Assembly (NCBI RefSeq): GCF_964355755.1
Contig: NC_092675.1
Span: 26,268,412-26,332,411 of the forward strand
Reading direction: 5' to 3'
DNA length: 64,000 nt
From: Antedon mediterranea
Lineage: Eukaryota; Echinodermata; Crinoidea; Comatulida; Antedonidae
Position 1 is the stretch's first letter; every line of letters begins with the position of its first letter. Positions 1 through 61,827 of the stretch are shown here, piece after piece. A program made the translations under genes and the position numbers. Under the pieces are notes generated by a model. That model searched no databases. It was not told where the DNA came from and worked only from the letters and a program-made list of their open reading frames with translations.

Positions 1-214
1 TGAAACAATTAATAGCTTACTTAATGTACATAACCAAATCTAATATTATGTTAAATTATATTATTTGATGTTTTAGATTTTTTTATATGTGGAAAGTTAA
101 GACAATCGATTTTCCTATTAGTATGAATCAGTCTAACTAAAAACAAAACATAAAATGTAATTATGTATTATTTTAAATTTATTTAATATTATTTTGTTTG
201 TTTTTCTTATTTAG

Positions 215-1008: not shown

Positions 1009-1529
1009 GTAAACATTATACATACAGTAATCATAAAGAAAGTAATATAATTTATATATGAATAAAAATACTGAAAGATGAGGGCGTAGCAATTTGATCT
1101 CTGTTGCGCGTGCGTACAACTGAGGACTAGTGCTGTTCCGCCGTACCACGCCGAGAATGTTAAAGAGTCGCTATCCAATCGAGTTTGAACAATACCATGA
1201 AAGCCCCAGTGGTCTAATGGTTAGGACATCAGGACATCTGCATATCAAGCAGGCGGTCCGAGTTCGAGCCTCGGTTGGGGCGACTTTTTCTCATTCTCAC
1301 AGATTTCCTAATTTTATCGTTTCAAATTAATTAATTAAATTTCAGTATATCACCGGGCGGTTTCGAATTAATGTCCATTGCCTAATGTGTTTATATATAT
1401 AAAAGTATCTCTTCGGAGATCCCGCCTCGTGAATAAAAATACTGAAAGATGAGGGCGTATCAATTTGATCTCTGTTGCGCGTGCGTACAACTGAGGACTA
1501 GTGCTGTTTCGCCGTACCACGCCGAGAAT

Positions 1530-1569
<40 letters not shown>

Positions 1570-10900: not shown

Positions 10901-11634
10901 TTGTGGCATGTAGCAAATTTAATTAGGCCTATGTCATTATGCTGAATTAGACTATAGATAATGTATAATTGTAAAACTCATAAGAGTGAAACAATACTAA
11001 TGATCGTGAAGTAAATGTGTGAAACCCACAAAAAAGACAAAAAAAAAACAAATCTTAGTGTTGAATATGATGCCAGTAGCGATTTAAATGGAGGGTGTAT
11101 CTTTGGGTATGCTAATTTATTTAGGCTACATTTGTATGAGCCTACTGATGTTGGATTAAACTACTGTGGTTCCATAAAATTATGCGGATCACTTAATTTA
11201 TAATTATATATTCTGGAATATTTTTTATTTATTTGTTTTATGTTTTTACATTGTAGAATTTGTTTTTAAATTGTTGTTTTCTATATCATAAATGTATAAG
11301 TCATAGGAGAAAAGTGATAGTCACCAGAATAAAGACAAATTACAATTCAATTACAATATCATCTTTCGTCACAAAGTGAGAATTATATACGTTTTTTTTT
11401 TACAGAAAAGTATGATTGTTACAGTTATAATCTTCCTTCAAGTTATCTTAATCTGCCTTGGTAAGTTATATTTTTCCGTAAAAAAGGAGCAACAATAATA
11501 GTTCAGTCTACTACTGACGGTAATCACTGCATGTTATATAGGCCTATCTAAACCAATCAACCAACCATAATTGTATGCCTATTCAATTTTTGTTAAATTG
11601 CAAATATTTTTTCACAGTCTTAGGCCTATAGTAG
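7906..11634 (+). repeat. Abutting tandem duplication of the gene B 5' region (2 x about 1.87 kb)
   Basis: Unit 1 runs 7906-9784 and unit 2 runs 9785 to about 11634. They start at the same ATGCTTTTACTTCC sequence and share long near-identical blocks, including a C-rich/(CA)n stretch (8515-8568 and 10379-10432), with small indels and point changes. Each unit contains one complete signal-peptide exon. The units touch directly, as expected for an unequal-crossover or slippage duplication. The rest of the block has no ORF that looks coding. Confidence 0.9.
9538..9592 (+). CDS. Signal-peptide exon in duplicated block, alternative or orphan first coding exon of gene B
   Basis: A 55-nt exon: acceptor TTTATGACAG, then AAAAGT and ATG at 9544, encoding MIVTVLILLKVTLSCLG, a hydrophobic signal peptide, with a phase-1 GTAAGT donor. 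It has the same length and layout as the first coding exons at 11406, 33449 and 55508. It could splice to the Ig1 exon at 12435 in frame. The acceptor in front implies an upstream 5' UTR exon. Whether it is used is unknown. Confidence 0.6.
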
Positions 11635-13613
11635 AATTTAGAGCTCTAACGATAACGATAGCGATAAAATACTGTTATTGCTTTTTGGGTTGAATTATAC
11701 AAAAAAATATAATTATGCTTAAATGAAAAAATATCAAACGTATCAACAACAAAAATCTAATTTTCTACGGAAGCCCTTTCGGACCATTAGTATGCCGCAC
11801 TATTCACTATTGGCCTGAGTTTCCGTACTATTTTCTTTCTAGTGAGACAACAAACATATCTAAATATAATACAAATAAAATAATTACGCCGCAATGATGT
11901 ACGGTAGGGCCTAAGTTTACAACCTGTGTGTGTGTGATTTATTCATACAAATTAATTTTTAATAGTTTACAATTTATGAAATCTAAGTAGTAAAATAGAT
12001 GTATCACTTCTCATCCATGTCTTGTAACGGTCATGATGTATTTGTCAGCGCTTGTATCCATTATGATTTATTCAACCGAATGATTGAACGTCAGTAACGT
12101 ACACAAAGGACTGACACTGCTACACTCAATATGATTAAAATAGAATCCTAAATAAAAGTGCGTCAATTTACAATCAAGAGAACTGTCCATATTACGCACG
12201 TTGGCATTTTGTCTAATTATTTTCTAACATTTCGATTCCGGCAAAGGCTACGAAATCTTCACCAAGTATAACCTCTACAGTACTGTATAAATGTGAGTAC
12301 AAAACACCATGACAATGACAAATCCGCGTTAACTGCAGTAGAAATTATTTAATTTCTCATCAAATAAATAATACCAATATGTAATGTATTTATTTTATAA
12401 TTGTTTAAGAAGTATGTGATACATTTTCTTTCAGGAAATGATAGATATATTACAGTTTTGAATATATATCCAAAATACGACAATGATTTCCAATACCAAT
12501 GTTATCCTCCTACTGGCTATACTGGTTATAGTCTGAGTTACGGAAGATCATTTGCAGTAGCGAATGGTGAAAGTTTGAATGAAACACCGTGGATCTTGGG
12601 CAGTGGGCGCAAGTATGTAGCACCTAATGTTGGTATGGGAGTGTATTACTGCATGATAGTAAACAATGGTATCACTACAGTCGTTCAAACTACAAAAATA
12701 AGAAATGATGGTAAGGTATATAGTACTGATAAAACCTAATTTAGTACAATATACTATTGTTTGTAAATTAGCGGCAAAATATAAACAATAATTATAATGA
12801 TTCAAGATATTTAAATATTTAAGCCATTTTAATTTTGTATTTTTCTTTAGGCGGTTACTGGTGTAATTGTTACCGTTTGGTTGAGCGTCCGTATGTCTCT
12901 AGGCCTGCGTATTTTTCATTTGAGATACAATCACTCATGTTATATCCTAAAAACGTCTTGTCTTGTATTGCTGTGTTGTAACAAAATGCAAATATTGTGT
13001 CGTTATAGTTTCAAATGTAAAATGTATTATATTGTACATGTATTGTGTGAACGTTAACAATAGATCTACAGGTATTAGTTGTGGGATTACTGACTTACCG
13101 GCTACTGGACCTATATTACTTACTAAACACTCAAACACTCTAAATAATAATATTTATTTCGTTCTTCAATTAAATAACAAAACAAAAATGACATAAATAA
13201 ACCTTTAAAGTAGTCTTAAATAAAAAAATGGTAGGTATAAAAAGTGCAGAATAATTAGATAATTGTTGTTTAAAGTTAGATGTTAACAATAAAGACTTCA
13301 TTTTAACATGAGAAACAATCTAATTGATTTGTGTGATTATTATTTCTTTTTTTCAAAACAGCCTTAATAACACCTGAAAATTCTAAAAACACAATCACTG
13401 TAAATGTTGGTGATGACGTCACCATTCGATTTGATACGGAATTGACCAGTGATTTAGTATGGAGGAAAGATGGCTCTACTACATTAAAGATTGGAACGGA
13501 AAAAAACATGACTTTTAACCCAGTAGAGACCAGTGATGCTGGGGTTTACGAGATGTATGAGGATGGCAACCGGGAAGATCGTAGGCATGCGTTTATCAAG
13601 TTGATTGTAAGAG
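11406..13613 (+). CDS. Gene B exons: signal peptide, Ig1, Ig2
   Basis: Exons 11406-11460 (ATG 11412, [17 protein letters not shown]), 12435-12710 (Ig1; [12 protein letters not shown]) and 13362-13613 (Ig2; [21 protein letters not shown], ending KLIVRG). Acceptors are TTTCAG at 12434 and AAACAG at 13361; donors are GTAAG at 12711 and GTAAT at 13614. All junctions are phase 1. Confidence 0.85.
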
Positions 13614-16600
13614 GTAATAGGTAGTATTAATGATTATAATGATTTTCAATGTGTGTTCTTTATTGATAGACGGCACACATTGCAATGATAATGATGATGG
13701 TGATGATGACGATTCATTTTTAGTCGCGTGGACGCGACTCTATAGTTCACTATGTCGGTCGGTCGGTCTGTCGGTCTGTCGGTTTGTCGGTCTGTCTGTC
13801 GGTCCGGTATCACTAAGCGTTTTATCGCTTTCTGACCTTATCTTGATATCAGTTTAATCTAGCTAAGTCAATTTTTCACAGTATATTCCTTATGGCCAGG
13901 AATCGATGTGGTTATGTTTTCACGGTGCACAATAAAAAATTACGCGGTCTACGCACGATTTAACGAAATCACGTTTGTAATCATATCTTCACAACCATGA
14001 ATCACAATTAAATAAAATTGGTACTCATAAATTTCAGGGCATAAATCATCATAATGGCAATACAATTACGTGCGTAGCGCATGTAACGCATGCGTACGCG
14101 CGCTTAACATTTTCAAAATTTATTTTCGATGAAATAAGAGTACGTTTCAGGCAATTTTAAGCGTTTACAAAATTGCCATGAGTGCGCAGATTTTTGCGTG
14201 CGCATTGCGCATTAAATGTTATTGCGCACTCTTTTTGCCCGATTTCTGTTTTCTTGACTTACTTTTCAACTCGAAATTACGTTATACGAGCACGTCAAAA
14301 GTGACAGGCTACGCACGTGTAAATTAAAATATAACTGTTTTTAAACATTTCAACATATTTAAACATGTTCAGTAATTTCGGTCAGTTGTAGGTTGGTCGG
14401 TTGGTCGGTAAACACTAATGAGCACGCGACTGCAGCCATCTATATGGCCTTGTTTATTTATATTGTATATTCTGAAATAAAAGAAAATAATTTATTTCAA
14501 ATTTGTTCTTTTTTTAATATCCATTTGAGTTAGAGAGAGTTAGAGATTTAATTGGAGGGAGACCTGTTACTTGAAAATGAATGAAAGCTCAACATGCTGT
14601 TTTACTTTATCGGTGTGATTTAGCTTTTGCTTTATACATTTTATTTGTATCTCCATTGAGATCCAGCCACAGCATTTTCAGTGGTTTTTTCTGCAAAGCA
14701 TTTTCAGTTAATATTTTTTCAGTAATTCGCCTTTTCATTTAATCATTAGAGACTTATGTACTATATTTGAACCTAAAACTTAAATTTTGCAAATACATAC
14801 CAAAAACGGTTAAAATAAGCTACTTAGAACGATTTTATTTATTAAATAGGAAGCTTTATATTTTGACTTAATTGATTTACAGTGAGGTTTCGTGTCTGAA
14901 TAAAAAAACGGTTCCGTTTGCCTTATCATATAAAGTATAAAGTAAATATAATAAAACAGTATTATAGTATTTACTTTTCATAGCTTGCCCACGTCACAAA
15001 TGGGGTCCACTTAACTGCACTGGTGATTGTGAATACTGCTATAATGGAGGCGTATGTGATGACAAAACAGGATTTTGTATCTGTGCACCTGGATTTGAGG
15101 GATCCATGTGTGAAACTGGTAAGGAATACTACTTTACACAAATAATTATTACATTCAAGTTTCAATTCATTTCTTCTAAAAATAATAAATGGAATGATAA
15201 ATATTCTAAAAATATTAATTCATTTTCAGTGGACATACCAAGATATTTGTAATTGTTAACAATTTCAATTACTGTACAATTTACAAGTTGTAAAAACATT
15301 ATCCACAACTTTTATAATAACAATCATATTTTTGTTTCAATCCAGCAAAAATAAAACATGTATCTAGCAAACAAAGAAAGCTTCAAATAATACAAAGATG
15401 TTTGTAAAGATATTTAATGTTGACCGAGGGAATCTCAATAGTGTTGTATATTTATTATATAGCCTATGCAAATACGTGAACGTGATTGGTTGAAACTGCA
15501 TCACATGACGCTAAATGAACAAAAGTCATCTACTGAGACTCATCACGATACAACGTTTTACACGCCACGTAACTTGCTTGAAGAATTAATCAACTAAACT
15601 ATTTAAATTATGCATATATAGCGCCCTTATTTGTTATTCACCCATTATAAATGTGACGAAAGACCGTTTGCGATTGGTCAACACTCACGCTAGTAGCCTG
15701 GTACGCGCGGCGCCCTTAACATCCGGTGATTCGGCTCGAAGAAGACAAATTATTATTTATTCGGCCTAGGTCTATCCCAAAGATCGTGGCGCTATAGTAT
15801 CATTGACATAGGCCTAGTATAGGGCCTACGTGATAATCTATATATAAATTATGGTTAATTCTGACATAGGCGAGCACAATACAAAAACTTCGGTATAAAT
15901 CTCCGCCTTGGATACCTACCTTATCTATCTCAGATGTACCGCGAAACGTAGATTTGATAATATTAGTTTTCAGTACTACGCTATTGTTCCATATTTCTAT
16001 CTTAGGAAGATATTATAAAGAGTTTTTTTAACAAAAATGTATGATTTCAACAGTAGATGTTCAACTCAATTTCAATTCTTCGCGGTCCATGTAATTTCCG
16101 GGTTCACGATTAGTTTACCTTGCAACAACCTGGTTTCAACTATTTTCTCTCTTTTATACACAAGGGAGCAGTAAAAATAATAGATTTGACCCTAAAGGTG
16201 ACTGGAAACAGGCACTTTCCATCCATCAATACAGTGTCCCTTTGGAAAACTGAAGAAAAAAACCGATAGTAGGACTGGAGCTTAAGTCATAGTGGCTAGT
16301 CATTCCGGTTTTTTTGTTTATTTTAGGAACGGACCGCGCGTGTGAAGGTACAGTAGTTACAAAATAAAAATTGTACTGCAAATTAATAAAGATCAAATTA
16401 AATATATGCCATAAAGAATCTGAATATATTGTGGGGAATAGTATTATAAAATTACATACGGAGATTTGATGATAAGATATTTTGTTTAAAATCGAGTGAA
16501 ATCCCGATATCCGAGTTTTATTGAGTAAGCTGGCAGGAATAACTGTAGGCTATCTCTGTCCCGTTAGGACCGAGATGTCTGCCCATGTTGCAAGCCGTAA

Positions 16601-19600
16601 TGCCTTCTTGGGCCGACGGCCCACTCTGTCACGGAAGTTAGTTTCAAAAGATGTTTAAATTAAATAATGTATTAATTATTAGGATGGTATTTATTTGAAT
16701 AAACGCCTCTCCAATAAAACATCACTTTGAATAATAATCCCCCTCCCAACCCAACTATCTAATAAACGTCCATCCACATTTATAACAACACAATTATACT
16801 ATTTGTAGTAGAATTCATCGCACTGCTATCTACAATTTACCAAGCATTTGTTATTCTTTTTTACCACTTTTCCAGCCGCGTAACAAGGGGGTCTTGTCAG
16901 GGGGGCAAAGAGGGGAAAATCCTTCCAGACACCAAGTACTTGAGCCACAGCCCCCCCATGGTGGGGGCTGTGGCGAAGCGAATTTTGGTAAATGACACCC
17001 CTAGATCGTCGGAAATGGTACTCTCGCACACAAAATTCATGACAAATGGCGCCTAACTAGTAGTAGTTGGCCTGGAAATAACACTCCCATTTATTGCACA
17101 GCAATCAGCAAAATGATCGTACATTTTCCACCGTTAAAAACACAGGTGACATAACATTTGAACATGTGAAAACCCAATCTAACATTGGATCCGCACCTGG
17201 CAAAGGTAGTAATTTTTCCGGTTAGAAGACTGAAACAGGGCCGTAACCAGGTTTGACGGCGGGGTGGATCGTTAAATTGTTTAGTGGAACCATAACCTCG
17301 AATTTTTTTTTCTCTATAGGCCTATGTATGGCCGCAAATCGCATTTCCGGCTAAACTCTTTTGTTTATGAACTATATAATTTGGTGAAATTTCCAGCCCA
17401 CGAATTTCAATTGCCGACCTTATTGCCGACCTTAAATTGTCAGAGGACGGCATTCTCTTGCCGACCGAAACTAGGCTAGATCCCTCCTCCCTTTAAGCCT
17501 CCTAGTAACAACATGGTACATTAAGGGATCGTATCATTGAGACTTTAACAGGCATATTCACCATCATGTGGTGTTTAGGTAGCAAACCATGGAATTAAGG
17601 TGATCCCTGAATTCACTCAACCATTGCATCTTGCACTTGCGTGAGCTGCATGCTTTCTCTCTATACATCAAGCAGCTGGCTGGGCACGTCACACGCACGC
17701 AGAGACCTGTGTAGGGGAATACCCTTTTATGTCAAGCAAACAACTATGCTCTGTGCACGGCTAGCTCCAGAACCACGATGTTCAGCAGTTATCAAATAGA
17801 ATTTATCTTGTAAATTTAGTGTTAGGTTTTTATATTTTAGTTAAAATATACTTTATATTCTTATGTCGATTTATATTAATTAAATTTATTAAGGCTTGAC
17901 TAGACCTGTAGTAAACAATCGTAGTGTTGTGTTAGTATGCCTGTGAAAGATTGAGTATTGGAGTGACAGCCAGCCACGAAAGTACGTTCGTTTTGCTGAT
18001 CGCTAGCGCGTTACATACGATTAGTAGGAGTGTATTTTTTTAAGGTGACCTCACACGCACAGCACAGCGTCACAATTGTGTATGAGAATGATGCCCGCGA
18101 TGGCGGCTTAGATAAAAGACGCCAAAAACCACAGTCAACTGACCGCATGTTAATGTACTGATAAGCAGTGCGTCTTCCCACGAGCTAGTTGTCAGTCAGG
18201 ATTTTGTGTATTTCATATCATCTTACTTGAATATCATACTGTACTGTGACTCATTTGAAGCCATATCATATATCGTATATTTTATTCTTATATTTTCTTT
18301 CTTTTTCTTTCTTCTATCCCTTCTTTGTATTTTATTTTATTTTTTTGACTTGTTACCCAGCCCGATCGAACGCTTCTCAACCCGGTAAAATCCGCCAGGG
18401 GGGTATTCCGCCCCCCCTGCCCCCCCGCCTGTTACGCCACTGCACTTTTCATATATATTAGAGGATTTCATTTGATTATAAATGTTACCATATTATTAAA
18501 ACTAAAAAATTTAACATATCCCTCGAATAAGCACCTTCCTCAAATGAACTTTCCCTCCCCACCTCCGCCCTATAAGGGCCCTACCAAACAATAAAAACTA
18601 TACTTTAAAATGTTATTAATCATCTAAGACACTGTGAAACAGAGTAGTTTAGTTTTACGAATATCAAGAATTTTCAATATTGGTAACCGACAGAAAACGT
18701 ATAAGGAGAACATTATTATTCCGAGAACCATCGTCTACACTTCCTAGAGGGGGAGCGAGCGAAGCGAGCTCACCCTCTAGTAATAATTATTATTATTATT
18801 ATTAATGTAGGCGCGCTTATTGGTGAAAATTCTTCTTTTATTATTAATACGACCTAGGCCTAAGTGAATATTTCATTGACAGGGAATTATTAATTAATAA
18901 TTATCTGTATATTATTCTTCGCAAGGTAAGGTAAATGCAACGCCTAACTATAGCCTAGGCTGGCTTACATACATTAAAGGAGGCCTAGGGGCTTAGCTAC
19001 CCGACCCAGGAGATATTCTACTTGTTGTTGGCTATATATCGCCTTTTATATCAGTAAAATATAAGATTTGACATCCACTCTCTAAAAAATTATATTCCCT
19101 CGAGCAAAAATATCATTCCCTCCCTCGGGGATGTCAAATCTTATATTTTACCTCTAAGCAGGCAATATCTGTATAATATTAATAATGACTTAACTACAAA
19201 ACCCTAAAGTTGATATCATAGCCCTTTGTGTAAGGGCGGGTTGCGCAGTGTGTTGGCAGTTCGACTACTGATCGTGAGATCGAGTTTTGAATCCAACTCT
19301 CTCCGCATTGCTTGTATCCTTAAGATATTTTACTTACGTTTGCCTCTCTCCATCCAGCTGTATAAATGGGAACCCGGTTAGATCAAGACACAATTTTGCG
19401 CTGATTACTAGCAGCATTATGGGACTATGCTTCCATATGTGTTTGTATACTGGGGTAATATATAATGTTCAGCGCTTAGAGATTTCACAACATTAGTCGC
19501 TAATTAAATCGAGGATATAATTATTATTATTATTAGTAGTAGTGTTATTATTATTGTTATTGTTGTTGTTGTTGTTACTATTACTGTTACTATTACTATT

Positions 19601-22600
19601 ACTATTACTATTTTATTGTTATTATTATAACAACGTGTGTTATTTTCACTTAGATTGCGGCTACAATAGGCATGGTTGGAGTTGTGAAAATCGCTGTTCA
19701 AATAAGCATCATCCTATAAGGTGTAGCGCCTTTCAGTTCTGCTTACCTGATCCATATGGATGTAGCTGTGTTACTGGCTACCAAGGAATAAAGTGCATTA
19801 CAGGTAAAAAAAAAATTTTAGCACCATAGTGTTAAGACTGTAATTCGCATATATTTGACATTATTAATAAATTCAATAAATCGTATTGTACAGAATGTTC
19901 ACCAGGTACATTTGGAGCAGACTGTGCTCAAACTTGTCATTGTGAACAAGGTGATTGTGATAGATTTAGAGGAACATGCACTGACTCTTCTTGTGCATTT
20001 CCATGGATGGGATCTAACTGCCAAGGTAGTTTTAACATTATTTTTTTCATTATTTAAAAAATAGGATGATTGAAACAATTAACGATCAATTTGATATTGT
20101 TAACATTCTTGAACGTGATTTTTCCAAAACAAGAGTAGTAGGCAAAATAAAATTTTGCCTCCTTGTTGCCTCCTTTATGATTCCCATCATAAAGGACGTA
20201 ACTTTGTATTTATTCTTCAAAAACTCGAAATCAATCCATTTCTTTGCCTTTTAAGATGTTTCTGTGAATTTGTTCAAACTTCATACCACGTCATGTAACA
20301 AAGTTTACTATATATTCTACATTAACTTTCGATTTTGTAGAATGCCAACATAACTTTTATGGCGAAAACTGTGATATGGAATGTCCATGCGAATGTCATA
20401 GAGTGACAGGCAAGTGCAAAGAAGGCACGTGTCTTCCAAATTGGCTTGAACCTGACTGTGAGAATGGTAAGTAAAATAATAATGTAATTAATCATTCTTT
20501 TTTTCGTTAAATCAAATTAATTAAGTTTTTTTTCCACTTTAATACAACTGTGTGTCTTCATCTTCAACTTCATAAGTTCCACAATTAACACATTGATTAT
20601 TACGGAACTAGAGGCCTATTAGAAGAGGAGATGACTATGCCTGATACACAGTGTCTCGCACACGCTTGCATATTGTACACTGGACCTACGGACTCGTTCT
20701 ACCAGAAAATAGAGTTGGAGTCTCGAACCTTTGCTGATATTATGGTGTATTCCGGTTCTACTGTCTTGACCACCCACTCTAAAGTTCAAGTAGAAAGAGA
20801 CAATTAACAACATGAACCCATTTTACTTTACGTGCATCCTTGCTGCATGACGTATTTTGAACTGTTCTCTCTCCATTCCGACGCAAATGTTGTATATTTA
20901 TTAATTGTTTTTTTACTAATTAGACTAATTTATTATTAAATTCAATATGTTATACCTAAAATTAAATCGCAATTATTACAACTCCCTTTGTTCTGTTTTT
21001 AAATAACTTTGAAAGCTATTATTGATCATTAACATGCTGTGTAACCAAATAAAAATAAATAAACATGCATATATAGGCCTAAAGTAAGTTTCCAATGTAC
21101 ATAGGCCTATCCAATTAAAACTTGACGAAACTGTTTGTTCAATCCACAGGAATCGTGAATACCACATTTACCCCAGCGAATAACGGCCAGAATACAACTA
21201 CCTCTTGTTCGGTTTATCAGAATGGTGTAAACGATGTTCAAACAATGATTGTAGTGACAAATACTGATGTCACTAAAACCATTACAACAATATTGGAAAA
21301 AAAGCAAAGTGGTCAGAATATAATGACTCAAGCATTTTCTGTGATAGCTGATGTTGATTCGACATATAAATGTGTAATTTCACAAGAAAGTATGTCAGCT
21401 CAGAGCGCGATTATTTCAGAAACATTTAGTAAGTTGTATATCATCAATAAACGTCATGCAACATAATCATTTTATTTATAATTTATGTAATTATTTGTTC
21501 ACAAAATAACGAATATTTATTTTGTTCACAAAAGAAATACCTTTATATGTCGGGAATCTGACGTTACTTAGTGTTTCAAGCTCCTCTATCACCATTGAAT
21601 GGACGGCATGGAATAGCAATACTGACGATGGAGATGGTCCAGTTGTCGGATACTTTTTATACCACAAACTGAACAATACTGACATTTGGAATCATGGACT
21701 ATACATCAATGCATTATCAGGCCCTGTTTCCGAGTTGATGTGGGATACAGAATACACTTTTAGTGTTTCTGCTGTGAGACCTGGTGAGGGCGGAGAAGGA
21801 CCAATCGGAGATGGAACAGTCACAGCAAAAACGATTTGCGGAAGTAAGTTATTTATATAATATCTTATATATTATTTCGGAAACACGCCGAACGTTTTTT
21901 TCGAGAGCTTTTCCAACTTTCCTTAGTCCTTGATTGACACCGAAGTGTTAAAATTGATGTCGTGAATTACGTTGCCGAAATTACGGCACAATTAAAACAT
22001 ACAATTAAGAAAAACTGAAGTTTAATGACAACATCGTCAGCGCAATGAAATACAGTCGTATGTGTTTTTATACCTTTATACAGGTAAATATTCAGATGTA
22101 TTTAATTAATATAATATCTTCATTGTTAGTCTTAATCTAAAGTAAGTGTATGCAATGATGTAATATTGATCAGTTATCAACCGAATAAAATAACCAACTT
22201 ATCCATCTATAGTATGTAAATAGAAAGCACACTATCAGTTCTTTTCCACTTAAAAATAATTAGAAGCATGAAGCATTTTTCAAAACATTAACATATTTGA
22301 ATTTTACGAGATTTAGGAACTTATAAATATATTTAAATTTGTTTGTGATCTAACATCAGCACCAGCTTCATTGGAAGAAGTCAATCATACGGTTTCCGAC
22401 ACGCCAAATATATTGGTGACCTGGACAGTAAGCAACTCTTGAACTTGTTGATTTGTTATAATAATTTTGTTTAGTTTAGCATGAATGAACGAGCAAATTA
22501 AAATAACCTAGGCCTGCTCCTTGTTTAGTTTCTTTGTATGTAAATTTGTGATTTTTAGTTTATTGTGAAATTTGACAACAAGCATTTAATCACTACGCTC

Positions 22601-25600
22601 CCAAAGATAAAAAAAATGCCATTGTTAATTATGTTCATTGTTTATCAAAGAGCAAATTTGCCAAATATAAATGTTGATTATTATTTTTGTTTATGTTTAT
22701 TTTTTGTTCTCTTTTGTGGCGTAAACACTAAATTTGATTTGTTTATTTATTATATTTAATTTTTACTTCAATCATACCATCTTTAGAAAATTAATGCAGA
22801 TGCAGAAACACTGAAATGTTATAACACGTCTTACGTATACAAAGTGTATCTCAAATCTAATGACGATGTTGGAATTGGTGAGGTAGTTTACATTGGAATT
22901 GACTCCAGCGTGACTATAGACAGTTCGAGAGTAGATGGTCTGTTGTCTTACAGCTTTTTAGTCACTGTATCTAACAAAGACAATGAAAGTGAATATGTTG
23001 AAAGTATCGATACTTCAGACAAAAATGAAGGTGGGTGCAGTGTCTCATTATTTAGGAAAAAGTAAGCAATTGTTTATAATACATGATTTGGAAAATTGTA
23101 AAACATGCACAACATCTCACTTTTTAGAGGGAATTATGACATTAATGAAAATACATTTTCATGATATATATTAATATTATAAAAATCTATAATTTTGGTC
23201 AGGATTACCTCACCTTTAGGTACATGTGTAGTCATTTATAAAATATGTAACATTACATGAACCAACAATACAATATAATTTAAAAAACATCGTACATCTA
23301 CAGGTCAAGGTACGGCACTTTTAAGCATTCCATATTTTACAGATATGTCTGAACCAAGTGGTGGCTCTTCTGGTGGTATTATTGGTGGTATAGTTGGAGC
23401 ACTCATTTGTATACTTTTGTTGGTTGCGGTTATCATTATTGTTATGTATGTATACATGTATATGTTAGTAATTATTATAAATATTTATAATAGTAAAATA
23501 AAAACATTTTAAATTATACTGAAAAATTGATATATTGTGTTTGCTGCATTTTATTTATTTTGTACAATTTAAAGGAAAAGAAAGAAAGATAAAGGCACTG
23601 AACATCGACAAAGGCAAGATAGAATACAATTTGAAGGCATGTTATTTAATTTAACTATGTTTATATATCATATATGCTTTCTAAAGTTGTTAAAATATAA
23701 TTTATAAGAACATGTTATTGTTTACAAGTTAACTAATTTAGAACTTTTTTCATTCTTAGACGTTACGTCACGCTCAGATGAATCAACAGCGCCATCAAAC
23801 ATCGATTTACCTGACGACACATCCTTTTTGTACGAGAACGTCCATGTGGAACCGTCAACAGCTTCAACATTTTCTCGAAGAATTCTAATTTCTGATTTGG
23901 TTGCTTATTTCGCCCATAAGCTTTCAACAGACTTACACAATGAATTTGATGTTAGAAAAACTGCCTAATTTATTTTATTAGATGTTTTAACAGGTTGAAA
24001 TAATTGTATAAGTAATTATTACAAGTACTTAAAACATTTTCTTTATAGCTATGTACTACAATATCAATATCAATGTTAATATAATATAACATTTAAAATG
24101 TTATTTCCTGTTACTATGCAAACAAAATGCACAAATAATAAATCAATAAAACAGCGGTGGAAATGTATCACAATACATTTTAACATAACATATTACTATT
24201 CTTATATTTCTAGCTTCTACCAGTCGACCAGACTCACCCATGGGAAGTAGCAGCCAAAGAATGTCACAAAACAAGGAACAGATTCAAGAATATTGTCCCA
24301 TGTAAATAAAGAATGTATGAATAATTACTTTGGCGGCTGCTGATCATGCGTAAAAAGTATAATGCTTCTTCTTGATGTGAAGATGTTGTTGTTTGTACTA
24401 AAATGAGAAAAAATGACAAATATCACATGCATAGAATAAATTCTAAACCGCCCGGTGATATACTGAAATGTAATTACTTAATTTGAAACGAGAAGGATGA
24501 TTAAATCTATGAGAATGAGAAAAGGTCGCCCCAACCGCCGAGACTCGAACCCGGAACATTCTGCTTGATATGCAGTTGTCCTAACCAATAGACCAATGGG
24601 GCTTTCATAGTATTGATCAATATAATATATATACTGTATTTAATTACATTAGTTTAATTTCTACTTAGATGATCATGCAAGAGTTGTGTTGGACAAGATT
24701 AACGGCGATCCTGATTCGGATTACTACAATGCAAGCTATATCGATGTAAAGAGATATGTATTTGAAATCGTTTTTAACATGTTTTTAAAGTATAATATCA
24801 CCTATTGCTTTTGTTTGTAGATATTAGAAAACATAAATCAATGGAACAATTATAGGCCTAATATTAAAAATCACTTTCAGTCAACAGTTTATATTATATT
24901 ATACTGTAATACAAAAAATAAAAGGGGGAATGGAATATCGATATATTCCTCATTTAAGAGGTTTGTAACATATCCCTCTATGTATTTATTGAAATAATAT
25001 ACAATCTTGACATTTTGTAACCCTTAACATAATAGTCTCTGTTATAAAAACGACTTCGACCATGTTGCTCTGTATTGATGTTAGTTATTGGTATTGTTTT
25101 AGGGTTACAGCAAAACGGAGCACTACATAGCGTGCCAAGGTAAGCAAACACAAATATTATCTAAAAAATAAACTTATGAGAAATAAATTCGTCTCATATT
25201 TGCACTATATATGACAATACTGAACACATTAATTTATAAATGATAAAGAATAAAATTAATTACACTTAAGCTCGTTTTTCCCTAGGTTTATATTCGCGAG
25301 AATCGGGCAAGCCATTGGTCACAACAAGTTGAAAACAATAATAATACGCGGCTCTAGTCAACGTTTCATTGGCGCGAATAAATTCGCCTAGTGGAAAACA
25401 TGCTTATATATTTTTTTTACAAATATTTCAGTGATACTTATTCCCATCCTCTAATTTATAAATGACCATCAACGATTTTCTTCAACAGGTCCTAACAAAA
25501 ACTCCCTTAGTGATTTCTGGCGAATGATCTGGCAGAAGAATATCAAAGTTATCGTTATGCTTACAAACATTCTTGAAGGAAATAAGGTGAATGAACTTTC

Positions 25601-28600
25601 AATATATCTATAAACATAAATGAATAGAAGACATTCACAGATCAATCTAAACCAAAATCACTGTAGGAGAAAGTTGTGAAACTTAAAATATTATTCTAAA
25701 AAATGTACTTAATAAACAAATAAAATAATAGTATAAAAAGAAAAGTTTAATACCCCAAATCAAGAGATTAACTGGACTTGTATGGACCACTATATAAGTA
25801 AAAAGGCAAATATAACAATTTGTATTTAGTTTGACGTGTTATATTTCTTGTTACAATCATTTGCATGGATATACTAATTAAAATGTTTATCTATTAATTT
25901 ATAACCAGGAGAAATGTAAGAAATACTGGCCTGATGAACAGGAAATGGTTGTTTTCGATGACATCACTGTAACGGTTACTAATGAAGAAACAACTGAGGA
26001 CTACACAACAAGAACTGTGCGAATCGTAAGTATTTAAGCTTGGTAAATTGATATAGATAAATATTCGTAATAACTAAGCAATTTAAATTTCATATTGAGC
26101 ATTACCATTATTCTGGTTATACTTTGACCAACACGGTCATTGGAAAACAATGCAGACGTAGAGCAAGAAGCTTGTAAGTAATGAATTTCCGTTAAACATT
26201 CTTGTTATATTATTTTATATTTTAAAAAAACGGATCATGAAACGTTATTATTAAAGACACGTTAAAGTGTAATGTATTTTGGCCAGTTAATTGAATTATT
26301 AATATTAAATTACGAATCATATTATTATCAATGGTTTATACTTTTTTAATATTGATCTTTCGTTCAGAACTATGATTGTATTTTTGGTGTTGATATCAAT
26401 GTGAATTATACTATTTACGTTGTAGGAAGAAATTGAACAACGTACCATTAAGCAGTTTCATTTCACTCAATGGCCTGATAAGGGAGTACCAAAGTCTGCT
26501 TCAGGATTACTGCGTCTTATCCAGAAAGTGAAAAGTGTTCGAGGAACTTCATTGACCCCGGTATTAGTACACTGCAGGTAAAGTACAATATTACCCAATG
26601 CTTATACAATGTATGATTAGGAATACATTCTGTAATAAAACCACATTTTCTTTTTTTAAAGTTCAAAGTGTACGTAGTTTACTGGTATTGAAAAGAAAAT
26701 GGTAGAGTATAGCTAGGATAGTGTCATCTTTAGAACTTCATTAAGTAAAATTAATAACATCCAATATATAAAAGATGTTAAATCAATTTATTTACGGTCT
26801 ATGTAACAAGAAACTATCCACACAATAAGCCTATTATATCATCAGATGCTGGAATTACTAATAACATTGCTTATAAATACTAGAAATTGTGAATTATTAC
26901 AGTGCTAATATCATTAAACCTCAAATTAACGAGTTTTGTTTTGTTAATAAACAGTGCTGGTGTTGGCAGAACCGGGACCTATATTGTCATTGACGCCATG
27001 TTGGATATGATAATGACTGAAGAAGCTGTTGATATTCTTCAATACATAACAGATATTCGAGAAGCTCGCATTAGTATGGTTCAGACTCCGGTAAGTTAAA
27101 TACAAAAAAAACGCCTCTTACTTTTAGAGGCCTACTTATGATAAAGTGTATACACTCTTTATTATTTAAATTTATTTTTTGTTGGTAATACTTGACTTAT
27201 ATTCTAGCATAGTTAATAATATAGATGTCTAATGTTTACTTTACTGTACACAGTACAAATTAAGGTATCAGTAAATGACCTTTAAGACAAAAAGTGGATA
27301 CAACGGAAAATTGTTTTTTAAATGGGTCTAAGATGATAAAACCCTAGCCTGTTGTGCATTATATGATATTAATGAATGACGGTCATCATTCCTATCATTT
27401 TTAGGAGCAGTATGTGTTCATTTACAGCGCCTTGAGTGAGTTTTATCTCAATGGTGTTGTACAATTCCCTGTCTCCGAATTTACAAGTCGAATGAAAAAG
27501 TTGAAGCGTGCAAATCCTAAAACAAAGAAAACGTTCATTGAAGAAGAGTTTGACGTAAATTTTATGTTTTTAATATATCTAGTTTTATAGGTAGGCCTAT
27601 TGCTCATTTATAACAATTGATTAGTAAATTATATAGTAGGTATTAACATTAACACAATGACAAACCATCCTGTCATAAACTGAACAAGGCATATCATATA
27701 CACGGATGCAGTCGAGTGCTCAAGTTAGTGTTTACCGACCAACCGACCGACCGACCGACATTAGTGAGCTGTAGAGTTGTGTTGCACTTGACTAAAAATG
27801 TAAACAATTCTGATTCATATTAACGGAAAACGTTTAAGAGAGGACGCAAGTGGTTTCACCAGAATTAAACACAACACATTTGGAATTAAAATTTCTCTTG
27901 CTGTATTATCTATCATCCCATTCTTCTTCATAATGTAAGTATAAATACAATTAACAGTTATCTCTGTGTTTGTCAATGACAGATGTTGGTTTCTGTAACT
28001 CCATCGCCACCTCTAGAAGAAATGTTGAGTGGACGTCAGGGGCACAGCATCAAGAAAAACCGATTTGGAAATGTGTTGCCAGGTATAAACGTTGATCATT
28101 GTTTAAAACATTGATAAATCAGAGGTGTAATGGTTGTTTGCTGTCCGTCTTACATTCAACCAGTGGATAGATTTGTTCAAGAAGTACTATCTATTCATAA
28201 CTTATCTATTCCATTGTGTTTGGCACGATTCTGCATCCCATTAAAAAAAAAGATTTTAAACATTTTGTTAATCTACCCCATTTCCATTTCTAATGAATAT
28301 ACTTTTGTTTTTTAACAATAGTTTTTGTTTCTTTGCTTCTTTTAACAGTTGATCGATCTAGAGTCATCTTAAAATCAGAAAGCAACAATTACATCAATGC
28401 TTCATTCATTAATGTAAGTTTTAGTCATTTATTTTATATATTTTATTTCAAATCAACTAACAGATATAAAAATACCCACAAAAAAGTTAGTAAGTTACTT
28501 AATAATAAATATATAAGTTGTAATAATCAACTTGTTTGAATTTAAATTTTGCACAATTATAAGAAATTCTTCGTAGATTTTACACACCCTTTTCAATCTC

Positions 28601-30822
28601 ACTATAATGAATTAACTTATACTCTCCTTATATATTAAAATGTTGTTTAATTGCAGGGTTGCAGAGTAAGTGACAGATTCATTGCTACTCAGATGCCAAT
28701 AGAGGATACAGTGGATGATTTCTGGCGACTTGTTTACGATTGGAAAACATCTACTATTGTGATGTTGAACTGCATGGATTATTCAGATCCGGTTGGTACC
28801 AATCAAATCATATGAGATGAACCAATTCTATTTTATTTTATTAATTTCGACAAACACATTTATACAAACATACAGACGAATTATCTAGGTTGCGCCAAGG
28901 AGTGGTAAAAGAAGCCAAGAGCTTTTGTCGCCAATAAGGCGTACCACTCCAACAAAATAGGCTAAAACGTACAAAAATTAATCTAAATTTATAATAAAAT
29001 TATATGGTTCTACAAAAAATTCAAAGAGAATTAGATTTAAACAAAAATTAAAAAACATAATTTATTGGCATTGGTAATTGTCAACCATAATAGTATCTAC
29101 TACTATCAGACATTTTACACTATAAATATTGTGTAAGTGAAGTGAGTAGTTACAGGTTCGATTCCAGCAAAAGTGGTTTCTTATCATAAAAATATCGGAA
29201 TATCAAAAATGATATGTCTAGCTCTATAATAATATTATTGATACTGTATAGGATGATATGCATATATTTTTCTAGTTTGTGTTATTATACTCTATATAAT
29301 TATTAACATATTTAGACATGCGCACAGTATTGGTTAGACGAGGGCAGCACTAAAACAGTTGGCAATTTGAAAGTACAATTTGATTCCGAAGAAATCAGAG
29401 GGCAAAATATAATCATCAGAAAAATGTCCATACATGCAACTAACAAGGTAAATCATTTAATATTTTTTGAAACCTGAAATGCACTGATTAAAAAGAAGAT
29501 CGAATATACTTTTTAGAGATTGGATAAATAATAATTATATATATTCGGTTTATTGTCCCTGACTATAATCCCAGTCTTTTGATATCTGTTTTTTTTTACT
29601 TACTGGTATATTACTTGGTATTTGTAAATTTGTTTGAGATTAAAATAGAAACAATTTAAAATAATAAAACATTTCCACAGAAATCTGAACCATTTTGTGT
29701 GACGCAATACCAAGTTACAGATTGGCCAGTTGACCAAGACACTCCAGAAAAGTTAGAAACATTGTTGCAGGTGTATGAAATGGTTCAATCCTCGCACACC
29801 TCCGTTGGAAACAGAGCAAATCCAATTGTAGTTCACTGCATGTAAGTATTACCAGTTCACCCTTCTCTGGTATTACCACTAACTTTTGTATAATACATTT
29901 TGCATATTATGCTACGCGATGTCGAAGCACAAACAGTAATATTGTAACACATTTTAGATGTAATACAATTAGAGACTGTGCACTCATGAAATGTCAAACT
30001 TATACCATTTTATCATTTATTATTGCAATTTAGGTTTAGTAATAGTTTAGTATACTTGTAATAACTATTAGTAATTATTATTATCTTTAATAGAATATTA
30101 TACAAATAAATGTTTACTTGGTATTTACTTTTATTACCTGTGTTTGCATAGCATATCTATTTAATGTATTGAATTCGTATTCATAGCCGGTGACATGACG
30201 TGACCCTTATGGGAGAAGAATGTTGTTGAAAAGTGTTACATTTAAGTCCACTGTGCTATGATCGCTATACAATACACAATGCAATACAATAAAACTTGAT
30301 TATCCCAAAACTCTGGGGAAATTCATTTGGTTGTGGTAGTACAATTTAGATTTTCATTATCCTATCTTCCGTATAGAAACGGTATTGGACGAACTGGCGT
30401 CTATTGTACAGTTACAGAAGCATTGGATAAAATGAAACAGGATGACGTCATCGATATTTTCCAATGTGTTAAACGACTTCGTAAAAATCGGCCAGGGTTG
30501 GTTACAAATGTGGTAAGTGGAACTATATACAGTAGTTGTTAATTGACAGAGTATGGAATGAATTTTGCATTAACTTGTGATGATTTAACTGTCATCTTGA
30601 TGGAATAACATTGAATAAAACCCCATCAAATAATTATTTGCATGCAATCGAGTTTTTATTTTACTTTTGTAACGTCACAATTTCAATGCACAATTTGAAA
30701 GTTTGCTCAATTGTAATTAAATTGTTAATAAAAATGATTGTTTTGCCATTTAGGAACAGTATTTGCTGTGTTATGACCTAGTGGGAGCCTACCTTCAGCG
30801 ATTTGCAACGTATTCTAACTGA
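11412..30822 (+). CDS. Gene B: Tie-like ectodomain receptor tyrosine phosphatase with two PTP domains
   Basis: A 29-exon model sums to 4029 nt (1343 codons including TGA) with every phase matching. Order: signal peptide, Ig1, Ig2, EGF x4, Ig3, FN3 x2, transmembrane segment (about residues 686-708), PTP D1 (nucleophile Cys about 981) and PTP D2 (Cys about 1274). The ectodomain matches Tie receptors in domain order and in motifs such as [11 protein letters not shown] and the Ig2-EGF1 joint (KLIVRG then C...KWGPPDC). The cytoplasmic half is a classical tandem RPTP. Expected role: plasma-membrane receptor that dephosphorylates phosphotyrosine proteins; the ligand is unknown. The junction after 23636 uses a GC donor. 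A second signal exon lies upstream at 9538. Confidence 0.88.
13717..14451. mobile_element. GGTC-array element, long form
   Basis: In gene B between the Ig2 and EGF1 exons. It begins with the hairpin TAGTCGCGTGGACGCGACT, then a (GGTC/GTCT)n array at 13755-13803, about 0.55 kb of unique sequence with no ORF, a second array GGTTGGTCGGTTGGTCGG at 14391-14408, and the end GCACGCGACTGCAGCCAT..GGCCTT. Short copies at 3336-3446 and 27685-27799 hold only the two ends joined through one array. The superfamily is not recognised. Confidence 0.6.
14984..20466 (+). CDS. Gene B exons: four EGF-like repeats
   Basis: Exons 14984-15118 (EGF1), 19654-19803 (EGF2, [17 protein letters not shown]), 19894-20025 (EGF3) and 20341-20466 (EGF4, [10 protein letters not shown]). 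The first two are separated by a 4.5-kb intron filled with mobile DNA, which includes a hAT-like element and a SINE. All exons are phase 1-1, and their six- to eight-cysteine spacing matches genes A and C. Confidence 0.85.
16865..18450. mobile_element. Non-autonomous hAT-like DNA transposon with 8-bp target duplication
   Basis: The element spans 16873-18442. Its termini are CAGCCGCGTAACAAGG and, inverted, CAGTGGCGTAACAGGC, followed on both sides by G-rich stretches. It is flanked by an exact 8-bp duplication, CACTTTTC, at 16865-16872 and 18443-18450. An 8-bp duplication and CAGTGGCGTA-type ends are typical of hAT elements. The 1570-bp body has no transposase-like ORF. It contains a GC-rich hairpin at 16945-16973. 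Confidence 0.8.
18743..18780. repeat. Hairpin, CTAGAGGG ... CCCTCTAG
   Basis: Near-palindrome with the inner part GAGCGAGCGAAGCGAGCTC, followed by an (ATT)n run at 18781-18803. Possibly the end of a mobile element. Confidence 0.5.
19054..19151. repeat. Perfect 23-bp inverted repeat with 52-nt loop
   Basis: Arms 19054-19076 and 19129-19151 are exact reverse complements (GTAAAATATAAG ... CTTATATTTTAC). Near the centre ATTCCCTC occurs twice. It could be a MITE fragment or a DNA hairpin. Confidence 0.75.
19225..19620 (+). mobile_element. SINE-like element with degenerate tRNA promoter and (ATT)n tail
   Basis: A box A-like stretch GGTTGCGCAGTGTGTTGG and a box B-like GAGTTTTGAATCC lie about 40 nt apart. 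A body follows with CAGCTGTATAAATGGGAACCCGG and TTCAGCGCTTAGAGA, ending in (ATT)n and (TTG/TTA)n runs at 19515-19630. The layout is that of a tRNA-derived SINE with a LINE-type microsatellite tail. Adjacent to the gene B EGF2 exon. Confidence 0.55.
21150..21428 (+). CDS. Gene B exon: third Ig-like domain
   Basis: A phase 1-1 cassette exon encoding the strand pattern TTSCSVY ... [16 protein letters not shown], with two Ig cysteines about 70 residues apart. Its homolog is 37255-37530 in gene C. Gene A lacks it. The position between the EGF block and FN3 matches Ig3 of Tie receptors. Confidence 0.8.
21535..23030 (+). CDS. Gene B exons: FN3 domains 1 and 2
   Basis: FN3-1 is one exon, 21535-21843 ([18 protein letters not shown] ... 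[19 protein letters not shown]). FN3-2 is split by a phase-0 intron into 22360-22427 (ILVTWT) and 22787-23030 (VYKVYL ... [13 protein letters not shown]). The last donor is GTGGGT, weaker than the GTAGGT in gene C. Confidence 0.83.
23343..23950 (+). CDS. Gene B exons: transmembrane segment and juxtamembrane region
   Basis: Exon 23343-23445 encodes a short Gly/Ser stalk and the membrane helix ([18 protein letters not shown]), ending in phase 2. Exon 23575-23636 starts with the basic stop-transfer MKRKKDK and must end at a GC donor (AAG|GCATGT) to stay in frame; the nearby GT at 23641 shifts the frame and hits a stop. Exon 23760-23950 encodes an acidic linker (FLYENVHVE) that leads to HNEFD, the start of the PTP fold, with an unusual GTTAGA donor that gene C shares as GTTAGT. 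Confidence 0.75.
24214..27554 (+). CDS. Gene B exons: PTP domain D1, catalytic
   Basis: Nine exons: 24214-24301, 24669-24745, 25103-25139, 25489-25586, 25909-26025, 26426-26577, 26955-27090, 27405-27554 plus the preceding linker end. Motifs in order: [19 protein letters not shown] (pTyr loop, with Phe where KNRY has Tyr), [39 protein letters not shown] (general acid Asp about 949), [11 protein letters not shown] (nucleophile Cys about 981), and QTPEQYVFIY (Q loop). All catalytic elements of classical PTPs are present, so D1 should be active on phosphotyrosine. Confidence 0.88.
24437..24602 (-). mobile_element. tRNA-derived SINE, copy 3, intact tRNA-like head
   Basis: Same family as 1203-1374. 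The 77-nt head (24526-24602) reads on - as GCCCCATTGGTCTATTGG with box A, a stem-loop with loop ATATCAA, box B GTTCGAGTCTC and the closing GGTTGGGGC. The tail ends ACCGGGCGGTTTAGAATT. Lies in the short intron between the first two D1 exons of gene B. Confidence 0.75.
25266..25405. mobile_element. MITE-like element with about 30-bp imperfect terminal inverted repeats
   Basis: The left end TAAGCTCGTTTTTCCCTAGG..ATTCGCGAG mirrors the right end GCGCGAATAAATTCGCCTAG..GGAAAACATGCTTA. In an intron of gene B D1. Too short to code for protein. Confidence 0.6.
27685..27799 (-). mobile_element. Short GGTC-array element (collapsed form)
   Basis: Matches 3336-3446: GGATGCAGTCGAGTGCTCAAG, then CCGACCAACCGACCGACCGA, then the hairpin region and GACTAAAAAT. 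Lies between the D1 and D2 exons of gene B. Confidence 0.65.
27983..30822 (+). CDS. Gene B exons: PTP domain D2, probably inactive
   Basis: Exons 27983-28082, 28349-28413, 28657-28791, 29316-29447, 29681-29841, 30377-30512 and 30754-30822 (TGA). The fold motifs [26 protein letters not shown] and FWRLVYDW are present. The signature HCINGIGRTG keeps CX5R (Cys about 1274). The WPD loop reads WPVDQ, so the general-acid Asp is a Val (about 1238). In RPTPs D2 is usually weak or regulatory, which fits. The donor after 28791 is GTTGGT, weak but conserved in gene C. Confidence 0.86.
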
Positions 30823-33448: not shown

Positions 33449-34957
33449 AAAAATATGATTGTTACAGTCGTGATCTTGCTTCAAGTTATTGCTTCATGTC
33501 GGGGTAAGTTAAGAATACGATTCAAAGATTGCGGATTACGTAAATTTAATATATAATGTCAATATATAATCTGCAGACAGACTGTGTCGTTTGGAAATGC
33601 ACAAAAAAATCACAATCTGGTTATCAGTGCCTATCGTGGTGTAATACGTATAATTGACCAGCTGTTATCATGGTCATAGTTTATAGGCCTATATTTATTT
33701 TAAGTATTACATGGATTCCAGCAACCGTACACAGATCTCCACTTAACATTTTCCTCAGTTCTGTGAATAATTACATTCATCAATAATGTAACACAACTAA
33801 ATCAAACGATTTGGTTGATCTGTGCTTTACAAACCTAGGTCTATAAAAGAAAAAAAACAGATATATTAAGCATACAATTCCGCACCAAATTCGATTACTT
33901 TTCAGCACCAAATGATTATAAAATACCATGATTATATTACATTTTATATTTTCTACATTTAGGAAATGATGGATATATAACAGTTTTGAACTTGTCTCCA
34001 CAAAGCAACACTAACACAGGGTATCAATGTTACACTCCTAGCACATTCAATGGTTATAGTTTGAGTTACGGTAGATCATTTGGTGTAGCGAATGGTGAAC
34101 AAGGAAATGAAATATTATGGAATGTGCCAGGTGATGAGATAAGTGGAAGGTATCTCACAGCAACAGTAGGCATGGGAGTATACTATTGCAAGATAGTGAA
34201 AGAAGGCGCCACCACATTCGTTCAAACTACTAAAATAAGAAATAATGGTGAGAAAACAAATGATAATAGTAATAATTGTATCAGCATTATTTAGTCTTTC
34301 TTATGGTACTGAATTTAATTGATAATAGTATATAATATACTTATAGGTTTTAAGTTCCACGGAGGTAATTTCATTTTTGCCTCTCTTTTTGGTGTAATTT
34401 AGCGTTTGACGTATTTATTTGTATCTGATTTCTATAATATTTTCAAGATTTGTTTCCAGTTATAACTGTCTAGAGAGAATAAACTGCGGTAACTTGTCCA
34501 TCCAACACACGATTACGATACTATCAGGTGACATAAACAGAACCCACATATGAAATAAGTTGAAGGCAGCAGACATGAAACTAAAAGTGATGTGTATTAT
34601 CCCTAGACATAAAATCTTTCGCGAATTATCAATTAGCAAGTACCTAGAATCACATGATTTTTACACTACTATGTATAAAACAATAAAAATGTTTTATTTT
34701 CAAAACAGCATTAATAACTCCTGAAAATTCAAAAAACACAGTGAGTGTAAATGTTGGAGATGAAGTCACGATTAGGTTTCAAACGACTGCGGGTGGTGTT
34801 TTAATGTGGAGGAAAGATGGCTCTGTATTGAATGATGCAACTGAAACGAGCCTCACATTTAACTCGGTAATCACCAGTGACACTGGGGTTTACGAGATGC
34901 ACATTAATGGTGACAGGGACAATCGTCAACACGCGTTTATTAAGTTGATTGTACGAG
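33449..34957 (+). CDS. Gene C exons: signal peptide, Ig1, Ig2
   Basis: Exons 33449-33503 (ATG 33455, [17 protein letters not shown]), 33963-34247 (Ig1; [16 protein letters not shown]; three residues longer than in B) and 34709-34957 (Ig2; [27 protein letters not shown]). The TTTTCAG acceptor before the ATG exon implies a 5' UTR exon upstream. Confidence 0.85.
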
Positions 34958-61600: not shown

Positions 61601-61827
61601 CATTTTTATATGATATTAAAAAGCGTCTGGTTGTTACCGAGTTGGTCACGGACATGTCAGTCTGTGACCAGTGTTATTACAGTAAGCTAAAGTCAGCATT
61701 TTAACAGTAAAGTTTATTTCAATATGCTTTGAAATCAATAATCAAAATATAGTATATAGTTAAAAAAAATTGAATTAATCAACATAGAAATATTAAGGAG
61801 GAGCCAACATAATAACTACTAATCAAA

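What the first reader, a model, noticed from the sequence alone, without database searches (positions are those of the whole stretch)
11412..30822. Tie-type ectodomain joined to tandem tyrosine phosphatase domains
Genes B and C carry the domain order and diagnostic motifs of Tie1/Tie2 (Ig-Ig-EGF-Ig-FN3, with [11 protein letters not shown] in the second EGF and the KLIVRG-C..KWGP joint), yet the intracellular part is a classical D1-D2 RPTP and not a kinase. Kinase and phosphatase receptors with the same binding head would allow ligand-controlled antagonism. Motifs and in-frame models are seen; homology to Tie and the function are inferred.
Basis: partly seen in the sequence, partly recalled or inferred. 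Interest (0 to 1): 0.92.

Follow-up and report, generated by a model that had tools for sequence, protein, structure and literature searches.

The report
Tie-type receptor with phosphatase tail
In a feather star, the outer part of the blood-vessel receptor family Tie is built onto an enzyme tail that removes phosphate instead of adding it, and related animals carry this outer part on both kinds of tail, which suggests opposing receptors that read the same signal.

The parts
11412..11460 (+). Gene B exon 1: start codon and signal peptide
   Evidence: phase-1 donor, hydrophobic [17 protein letters not shown]
12435..13613 (+). Gene B exons 2-3: Ig1 (12435-12710) and Ig2 (13362-13613)
   Evidence: sequence match to TIE2 from the end of Ig1 on; fold of P0005 aligned to TIE2 from residue 19
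14984..20466 (+). Gene B exons 4-7: EGF1 (14984-15118, KWGP), EGF2 (19654-19803, [11 protein letters not shown]), EGF3 (19894-20025), EGF4 (20341-20466)
   Evidence: TIE2 alignment of residues 84-331, 7e-50 for the whole sequence
21150..21428 (+). Gene B exon 8: third Ig-like domain (assigned by order and predicted strands)
   Evidence: strands in this part of the P0005 model; no sequence match to TIE2 here
21535..23030 (+). Gene B exons 9-11: FN3-1 (21535-21843), FN3-2 (22360-22427 and 22787-23030)
   Evidence: Pfam fn3 1.1e-5 on FN3-1; stalk matches the PTPRM ectodomain 1.7e-9 and a TIE2 FN3 weakly
23343..23950 (+). Gene B exons 12-14: membrane span (23343-23445), basic stop-transfer exon (23575-23636, GC-AG intron after it), juxtamembrane exon with YENV (23760-23950)
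24214..27554 (+). Gene B exons 15-22: PTP D1, [10 protein letters not shown] and WPD intact
   Evidence: Y_phosphatase 2e-153 for the tail, two stretches; motifs
27983..30822 (+). Gene B exons 23-29: PTP D2, HCINGIGRTG kept, WPD changed to WPV, stop codon at the end
33455..51709 (+). Gene C: complete paralogue of the same architecture, 29 exons, 1352 aa; D1 45086-47419, D2 47856-51709
187..7052 (+). Gene A: paralogous ectodomain (no third Ig exon seen) with membrane span and a short tyrosine-rich tail, no PTP; first exon not found
55946..57920 (+). Gene D: start of a fourth copy (Ig1, Ig2, EGF1); the rest was not found before the window ends

Best explanation
Gene B is a real single-pass receptor in which a Tie-type head (Ig-Ig-EGF) was joined by exon shuffling to an Ig-FN3 stalk and a tandem receptor tyrosine phosphatase. 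Shown: gene structure, Tie homology of the head, phosphatase homology and intact catalytic motifs of D1, tandem paralogues with and without the phosphatase, and repeated kinase/phosphatase exchange under Tie heads among the public gene models of other animals. Inferred: the head binds a ligand or partner shared with sibling receptors (a Tie kinase in other echinoderms; tyrosine-tailed copies such as gene A here), and the active D1 removes phosphate from those siblings or their adaptors, so that the family sets signal strength by the ratio of tail types sharing one head. D2 acts as a non-catalytic regulatory or docking domain, as in classical RPTPs.
For: Full-length models of two genes with identical phases. 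TIE2 best by sequence and by fold. A head profile built only from 9 vertebrate Tie heads finds 188 of 190 listed hits, while 1 of 118 other RPTPs matches, weakly and in its EGF part only. D1 keeps HCx5R and WPD in B, C and 65 of 77 complete relatives; D2 keeps both in 2 of 52, by a simple motif search. Purifying selection. Head-only search: 42 PTP, 42 kinase, 36 neither among the 120 listed. At least 14 kinase/PTP switches on the head tree, 11 forced by well-supported branches. Best same-species kinase/PTP pairs with 80-84% identical ectodomains, identity collapsing after the membrane span in the pairs looked at. Proteomics lists a Tie-2-like kinase and RPTP F-like and A-like proteins in Asterias rubens coelomocytes (PMC13409769, passages seen).
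Against: No transcript or protein of gene B was examined. The relatives are almost all automatic gene models, often in tandem arrays, where models can be fused wrongly; P0001 itself mixes two genes. None of the 7 Antedon head-bearing proteins found has a kinase, so the antagonist in this animal is unproven. Ligand and substrate are unknown. Pfam's own Tie2 Ig model (PF10430) did not match gene B. The coelomocyte proteins were matched by name only, not by accession.
Confidence: 0.7

Rival explanations
1. Gene-model or assembly artefact: a Tie-like ectodomain gene and a separate RPTP gene lie next to each other and only look joined.
For: The region is a tandem array, and public models here are partly fused (P0001 takes D2 from gene C; P0002 begins with PTP parts before a full copy).
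Against: The joint lies in the genomic sequence twice (B and C), with the same phases and, in B, introns of only 123 to 312 bases from FN3 to D1. The same joint is in a model of another crinoid (P0005) and on two contigs too short to hold introns (P0030, P0036).
Confidence: 0.04
2. The ectodomain is a generic Ig/EGF/FN3 assembly that resembles Tie by convergence.
For: Pfam gives only weak EGF and fn3 matches and no Tie model for the ectodomain; Ig3 has no sequence match to TIE2, and the stalk also resembles PTPRM (1.7e-9).
Confidence: 0.03
3. The protein is a real Tie-headed phosphatase but an adhesion receptor of the PTPRM sort: head-to-head binding between cells keeps D1 near adhesion substrates, with no relation to Tie kinases or angiopoietin-like ligands.
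For: D1 scores best with PTPRK/M/T among single-domain structures (267, 266, 265 bits against 251 for PTPRA) and groups with PTPRM (82/98); the stalk matches the PTPRM ectodomain. Ectodomains of B and C diverge more than D1. No Antedon kinase with this head was found.
Against: No MAM domain, a module of adhesion in that family (recalled); in starfish and amphioxus similar heads do sit on kinases.
Confidence: 0.25

Closest known systems
Tie1/Tie2 receptor tyrosine kinases (TEK, TIE1; SpTie1/2 in sea urchin)
   Same: Ig-Ig-EGF head, motifs, fold of Ig1-EGF3; Ig and FN3 stalk in the same order
   Different: Cytoplasmic part is a tandem phosphatase; four EGF and two FN3 modules; angiopoietin binding untested
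R2B receptor phosphatases (PTPRK, PTPRM, PTPRT, PTPRU)
   Same: D1-D2 tandem; D1 nearest to this group in single-domain score and in the tree; Ig-FN3 stalk matches PTPRM at 1.7e-9
   Different: PTPRK has a MAM-Ig-FN3 ectodomain (structure title); this has a Tie head and no MAM match
R4 receptor phosphatases (PTPRA, PTPRE)
   Same: Best tandem-domain match by sequence (PTPRA 1.3e-140); amphioxus Tie-headed phosphatases belong here (100/98)
   Different: No PTPRA row among the 118 further RPTPs matched the head profile; the crinoid D1 groups with PTPRM instead
VE-PTP (PTPRB) acting on Tie2
   Same: A receptor phosphatase with Tie-2 as substrate (PMC10815196, passage seen)
   Different: VE-PTP has FN3 repeats and a single PTP domain (R3 type as in the abstract of PMC5336234), no Tie head
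Paired activating/inhibitory immune receptors (KIR, SIRP and the like; recalled)
   Same: Closely similar ectodomains with opposite outputs in one multigene family, as the starfish models suggest
   Different: Here each tail is itself an enzyme, not an adaptor-recruiting motif

Membership tests
Tie receptor (ectodomain) | Ig1-Ig2-EGF1-3 head homologous to TIE1/TIE2 | tested here: met
Tie receptor (ectodomain) | Third Ig followed by three FN3 domains | tested here: inconclusive
   order Ig3-FN3-FN3 by exons and predicted strands; only two FN3 found, Ig3 without sequence match to TIE2
Tie receptor tyrosine kinase | Cytoplasmic tyrosine kinase domain | tested here: not met
   Pfam finds Y_phosphatase in two stretches and no kinase
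Tie receptor tyrosine kinase | Binds angiopoietin through Ig2 | not testable with these tools
   needs a binding assay
Classical tandem RPTP | Single-span membrane protein with D1-D2 PTP pair | tested here: met
Classical tandem RPTP | D1 with HCx5R signature and WPD loop | tested here: met
Classical tandem RPTP | D1 dephosphorylates phosphotyrosine | not tested
   inferred from motifs
R2B RPTP (PTPRK/M/T/U) | D1 groups with PTPRM | tested here: inconclusive
   82/98, not a starred branch; one R2B reference only
R2B RPTP (PTPRK/M/T/U) | MAM-Ig-FN3 ectodomain | tested here: not met
   no MAM match; head is Tie-type
R4 RPTP (PTPRA/E) | D1 inside the PTPRA/E clade | tested here: not met
   Antedon D1 lies outside; amphioxus D1s lie inside

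The most novel reading that the evidence does not exclude
The Tie head is an old, freely traded module. It sat on receptor phosphatases before or alongside kinases (arachnids, echinoderms and amphioxus carry it on phosphatases of at least two types), and in starfish it forms true paired receptors, a kinase and a phosphatase with nearly the same ectodomain reading one ligand with opposite enzymatic output. Vertebrate Tie1/Tie2 would be the surviving kinase half of a once two-sided system.
Probability: 0.4. Interest if true: 0.93.

Novelty: new variant of a known kind. Interest (0 to 1): 0.8.

Why it matters
Tie receptors are treated as kinases whose opposing phosphatase, VE-PTP, has an unrelated ectodomain. 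A family in which the Tie head itself is attached to phosphatases, and was swapped between kinase and phosphatase many times, would be a natural experiment on how opposed signals are wired to one ligand. It bears on the origin of Tie1/Tie2, on the classification of receptor phosphatases (in the passages seen of the review PMC10815196, Tie appears only as a substrate of VE-PTP), and on echinoderm coelomocytes, where a Tie-2-like kinase and RPTPs are reported together. It also makes the paired-receptor idea testable with enzymes rather than adaptors.

Tried and rejected
The window's own genome search (genome search, family PF00102) was asked nine times and never answered, so copy number and any Tie kinase in the Antedon genome were not measured. 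The D1-only protein search was swamped by vertebrate PTPRA; it served as reference and negative-control set (118 new proteins). A single clade of all Tie-headed D1s was tried and rejected (57 rows, p-AU 0.0174); a single clade of echinoderm plus arachnid D1s without PTPRM is neither shown nor rejected (54 rows, p-AU 0.364), so whether phosphatase or kinase came first under the head stays open. Whether arachnids lack Tie-headed kinases cannot be said: 13 of 13 arachnid hits with a head carry PTP, but 11 of them came only, whose full-length query favours PTP; the head-only list has 2. First motif counts of the WPD loop picked the wrong WP and were redone. Gene C's second-last exon was first set wrongly and corrected; dN/dS was first computed on the faulty version and then redone, which changed D2 from 0.28 to 0.18 and the whole-gene value from 0.30 to 0.28 and left the other domains. 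Literature: ten searches in a library of open-licence PMC papers listed no title or abstract describing a Tie-headed phosphatase; passages of five papers were looked at, none read whole. Stevens 2010 on SpTie1/2 was seen only as a citation; Byrum 2006 (sea urchin phosphatases) and D'Aniello 2008 (amphioxus kinases) are recalled, not seen.

Full report
What was checked. The window is animal DNA of about 32% GC with no N. Translating the + frames showed four tandem copies, A to D, of one ectodomain. For gene B a splice-site score and reading-frame rule joined 29 exons from 11412 to 30822 into 1342 residues with one terminal stop. Twenty-seven introns are GT-AG and one is GC-AG; gene C has 28 GT-AG introns. 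Gene C gives 29 exons and 1352 residues, with the same phase as B at all 28 introns. Introns 1-9 and 11 are phase 1, the usual condition for exon shuffling of extracellular modules (general knowledge).

Where it comes from. The best match in the protein database is an uncharacterized protein of the crinoid Antedon mediterranea (P0001, 97% over the whole length). Its first 1084 residues equal gene B, its last 279 equal gene C, so the public model joins the front of one gene to the D2 of its neighbour. Gene B has its own complete D2 and stop. The ectodomain-to-D1 joint is thus in the public annotation too, but the annotated protein is probably not an exact product.

The tail is a phosphatase. 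Pfam gives Y_phosphatase at 2e-153 in two stretches and no kinase. D1 of B and C has [10 protein letters not shown] and WPD; D2 of B has HCINGIGRTG but WPV. Over the family 65 of 77 complete D1s keep both motifs and 2 of 52 D2s do, by a simple motif search: the familiar pattern of an active D1 and a silent D2. Between B and C, dN/dS is 0.14 in D1, 0.18 in D2 and 0.25 to 0.49 in the extracellular domains, so both genes look functional.

How far it spreads. Of the 188 head-bearing proteins, 86 have PTP, 44 a kinase, 58 neither and none both. As PTP, kinase, neither: crinoids 4, 0, 6; sea cucumbers 21, 0, 12; sea urchins 18, 2, 18; starfish 23, 25, 13; brittle star 1, 3, 0; amphioxus 4, 5, 7; arachnids 13, 0, 0; vertebrates 0, 9, 0; hemichordate 0, 0, 1; no species named 2, 0, 1. 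These are database rows, with isoforms and fragments, and only the best 120 of 290 and of 124 matches were listed. In the head-only search the split is 42, 42, 36 of 120. P0030 and P0036 are coded on contigs of 7068 and 7686 bases, which their 2082 and 2112 codons nearly fill, so they look like transcripts with head and PTP joined.

How often it happened. The D1 tree used 57 Tie-headed D1s and 12 references (four of them D2 domains) after 13 long rows were dropped, seven of them Tie-headed. Amphioxus D1s fall inside the PTPRA/PTPRE clade (100/98); those of echinoderms and arachnids fall with PTPRM (82/98). Holding all 57 together is rejected (p-AU 0.0174). Bit scores against single-domain structures agree for three of four: amphioxus P0035 prefers PTPRA (331) and PTPRE (323) over PTPRK (284); scorpion P0031 prefers PTPRK/T/M (282 to 280) over PTPRA (219); Antedon prefers PTPRK/M/T (267 to 265) over PTPRA (251); starfish P0037 leans to PTPRA (256; PTPRT 245), which disagrees with its place in the tree. 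So the joining occurred at least twice. On the head tree (89 heads, 56 PTP and 33 kinase; 153 of 188 were complete enough, 126 remained after removing near-copies, 37 without either tail were left out) at least 14 changes between kinase and phosphatase are needed, 11 forced by well-supported branches, against a shuffled mean of 26.9.

Kinase and phosphatase with closely similar ectodomains. Eight species have both tails in the set; pairs were measured in seven (in Amphiura no membrane span was found in the PTP row). Patiria miniata P0053 (PTP) and P0176 (kinase) are 83.4% identical over 827 columns, nearly all of their 834- and 833-residue ectodomains; P0048 and P0154 80.2% over 900; Asterias amurensis P0049 and P0142 84.4% over 710 of ectodomains of 1312 and 887 residues. 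These are the best three; other Patiria and A. amurensis phosphatases have nearest kinases at 26 to 77%, and in the other five species the figures are 25 to 62%. In the P0053/P0176 and P0049/P0142 pairs identity is about 73 to 97% per hundred residues where they align up to the membrane span, then falls to roughly 20%. Fused gene models could mimic some pairs, since these genes lie in arrays; this needs cDNA. Proteomics of Asterias rubens coelomocytes lists a Tie-2-like kinase and RPTP F-like and A-like proteins (PMC13409769, passages seen). In our set A. rubens P0147 is named Tie-2-like kinase and P0058 RPTP alpha-like, and both have the head; the match is by name only.

How it most likely works. 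Shown: a receptor with signal peptide, Tie head, membrane span and an active-looking D1. Inferred: the head binds a partner shared with sibling receptors, and D1 lowers phosphotyrosine on them or their adaptors. In the window the natural sibling is gene A, a related ectodomain without PTP and with a short tyrosine-rich tail ending near 7052. In starfish it is the kinase with the similar ectodomain. The rival with most weight is a purely adhesive PTPRM-like role: both the stalk and D1 lean towards PTPRM, so the gene may be a PTPRM-type receptor whose MAM end was replaced by a Tie head.

Standing against the known. It is not a Tie receptor kinase (no kinase) and not an R2B phosphatase of the vertebrate sort (no MAM); it works like a receptor phosphatase that has taken the Tie receptor's sensor. 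Searches of open-licence papers listed no account of it; public databases hold the sequences under names such as receptor-type tyrosine-protein phosphatase mu-like or angiopoietin-1 receptor-like.

Noticed in passing
39831-40416 and 43874-44459: Two direct repeats of 586 bases, 100% identical, bracket an insertion of unknown type (LTR-like layout, open frames on the - strand) inside intron 13 of gene C, between the membrane-span exons and the PTP exons: probably recent.
   Followed up: partly
7906-9606 and 9785-11474: A 1.7-kb tandem duplication, 95.9% identical, lies upstream of gene B; the second copy contains exon 1 and the first holds a similar signal-peptide start in the frame opening at 9535.
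   Followed up: no
187-7052: Gene A keeps the head but shows no third Ig exon and no PTP; its short tail holds several tyrosines (YELTGDDYATV...). P0029 of Anneissia also has a PTP-free tyrosine tail.
   Followed up: partly
27554 to 47856: NCBI's model P0001 goes from gene B's D1 straight to gene C's D2 exons; whether this is read-through splicing or an annotation error is open.
   Followed up: partly
proteins P0106, P0115, P0085, P0169, P0121: Tie heads also sit on other backbones by precomputed Pfam: 7tm_2 (P0106, P0115), C-type lectin (P0085, P0169), fibrinogen C plus kinase in amphioxus (P0121) (names of the accessions recalled).
   Followed up: no
protein P0281: Amphioxus protein with fibrinogen-C domain, EGF modules, FN3 and tandem PTP: an angiopoietin-like ligand fold on a receptor phosphatase.
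   Followed up: partly
59124-63998: Open frames on the - strand (520, 326 and 616 residues) beyond the start of gene D that look, by eye, like non-LTR reverse transcriptase and endonuclease.
   Followed up: no
intron after 23636: Gene B has a GC-AG intron where gene C has GT-AG.
   Followed up: yes
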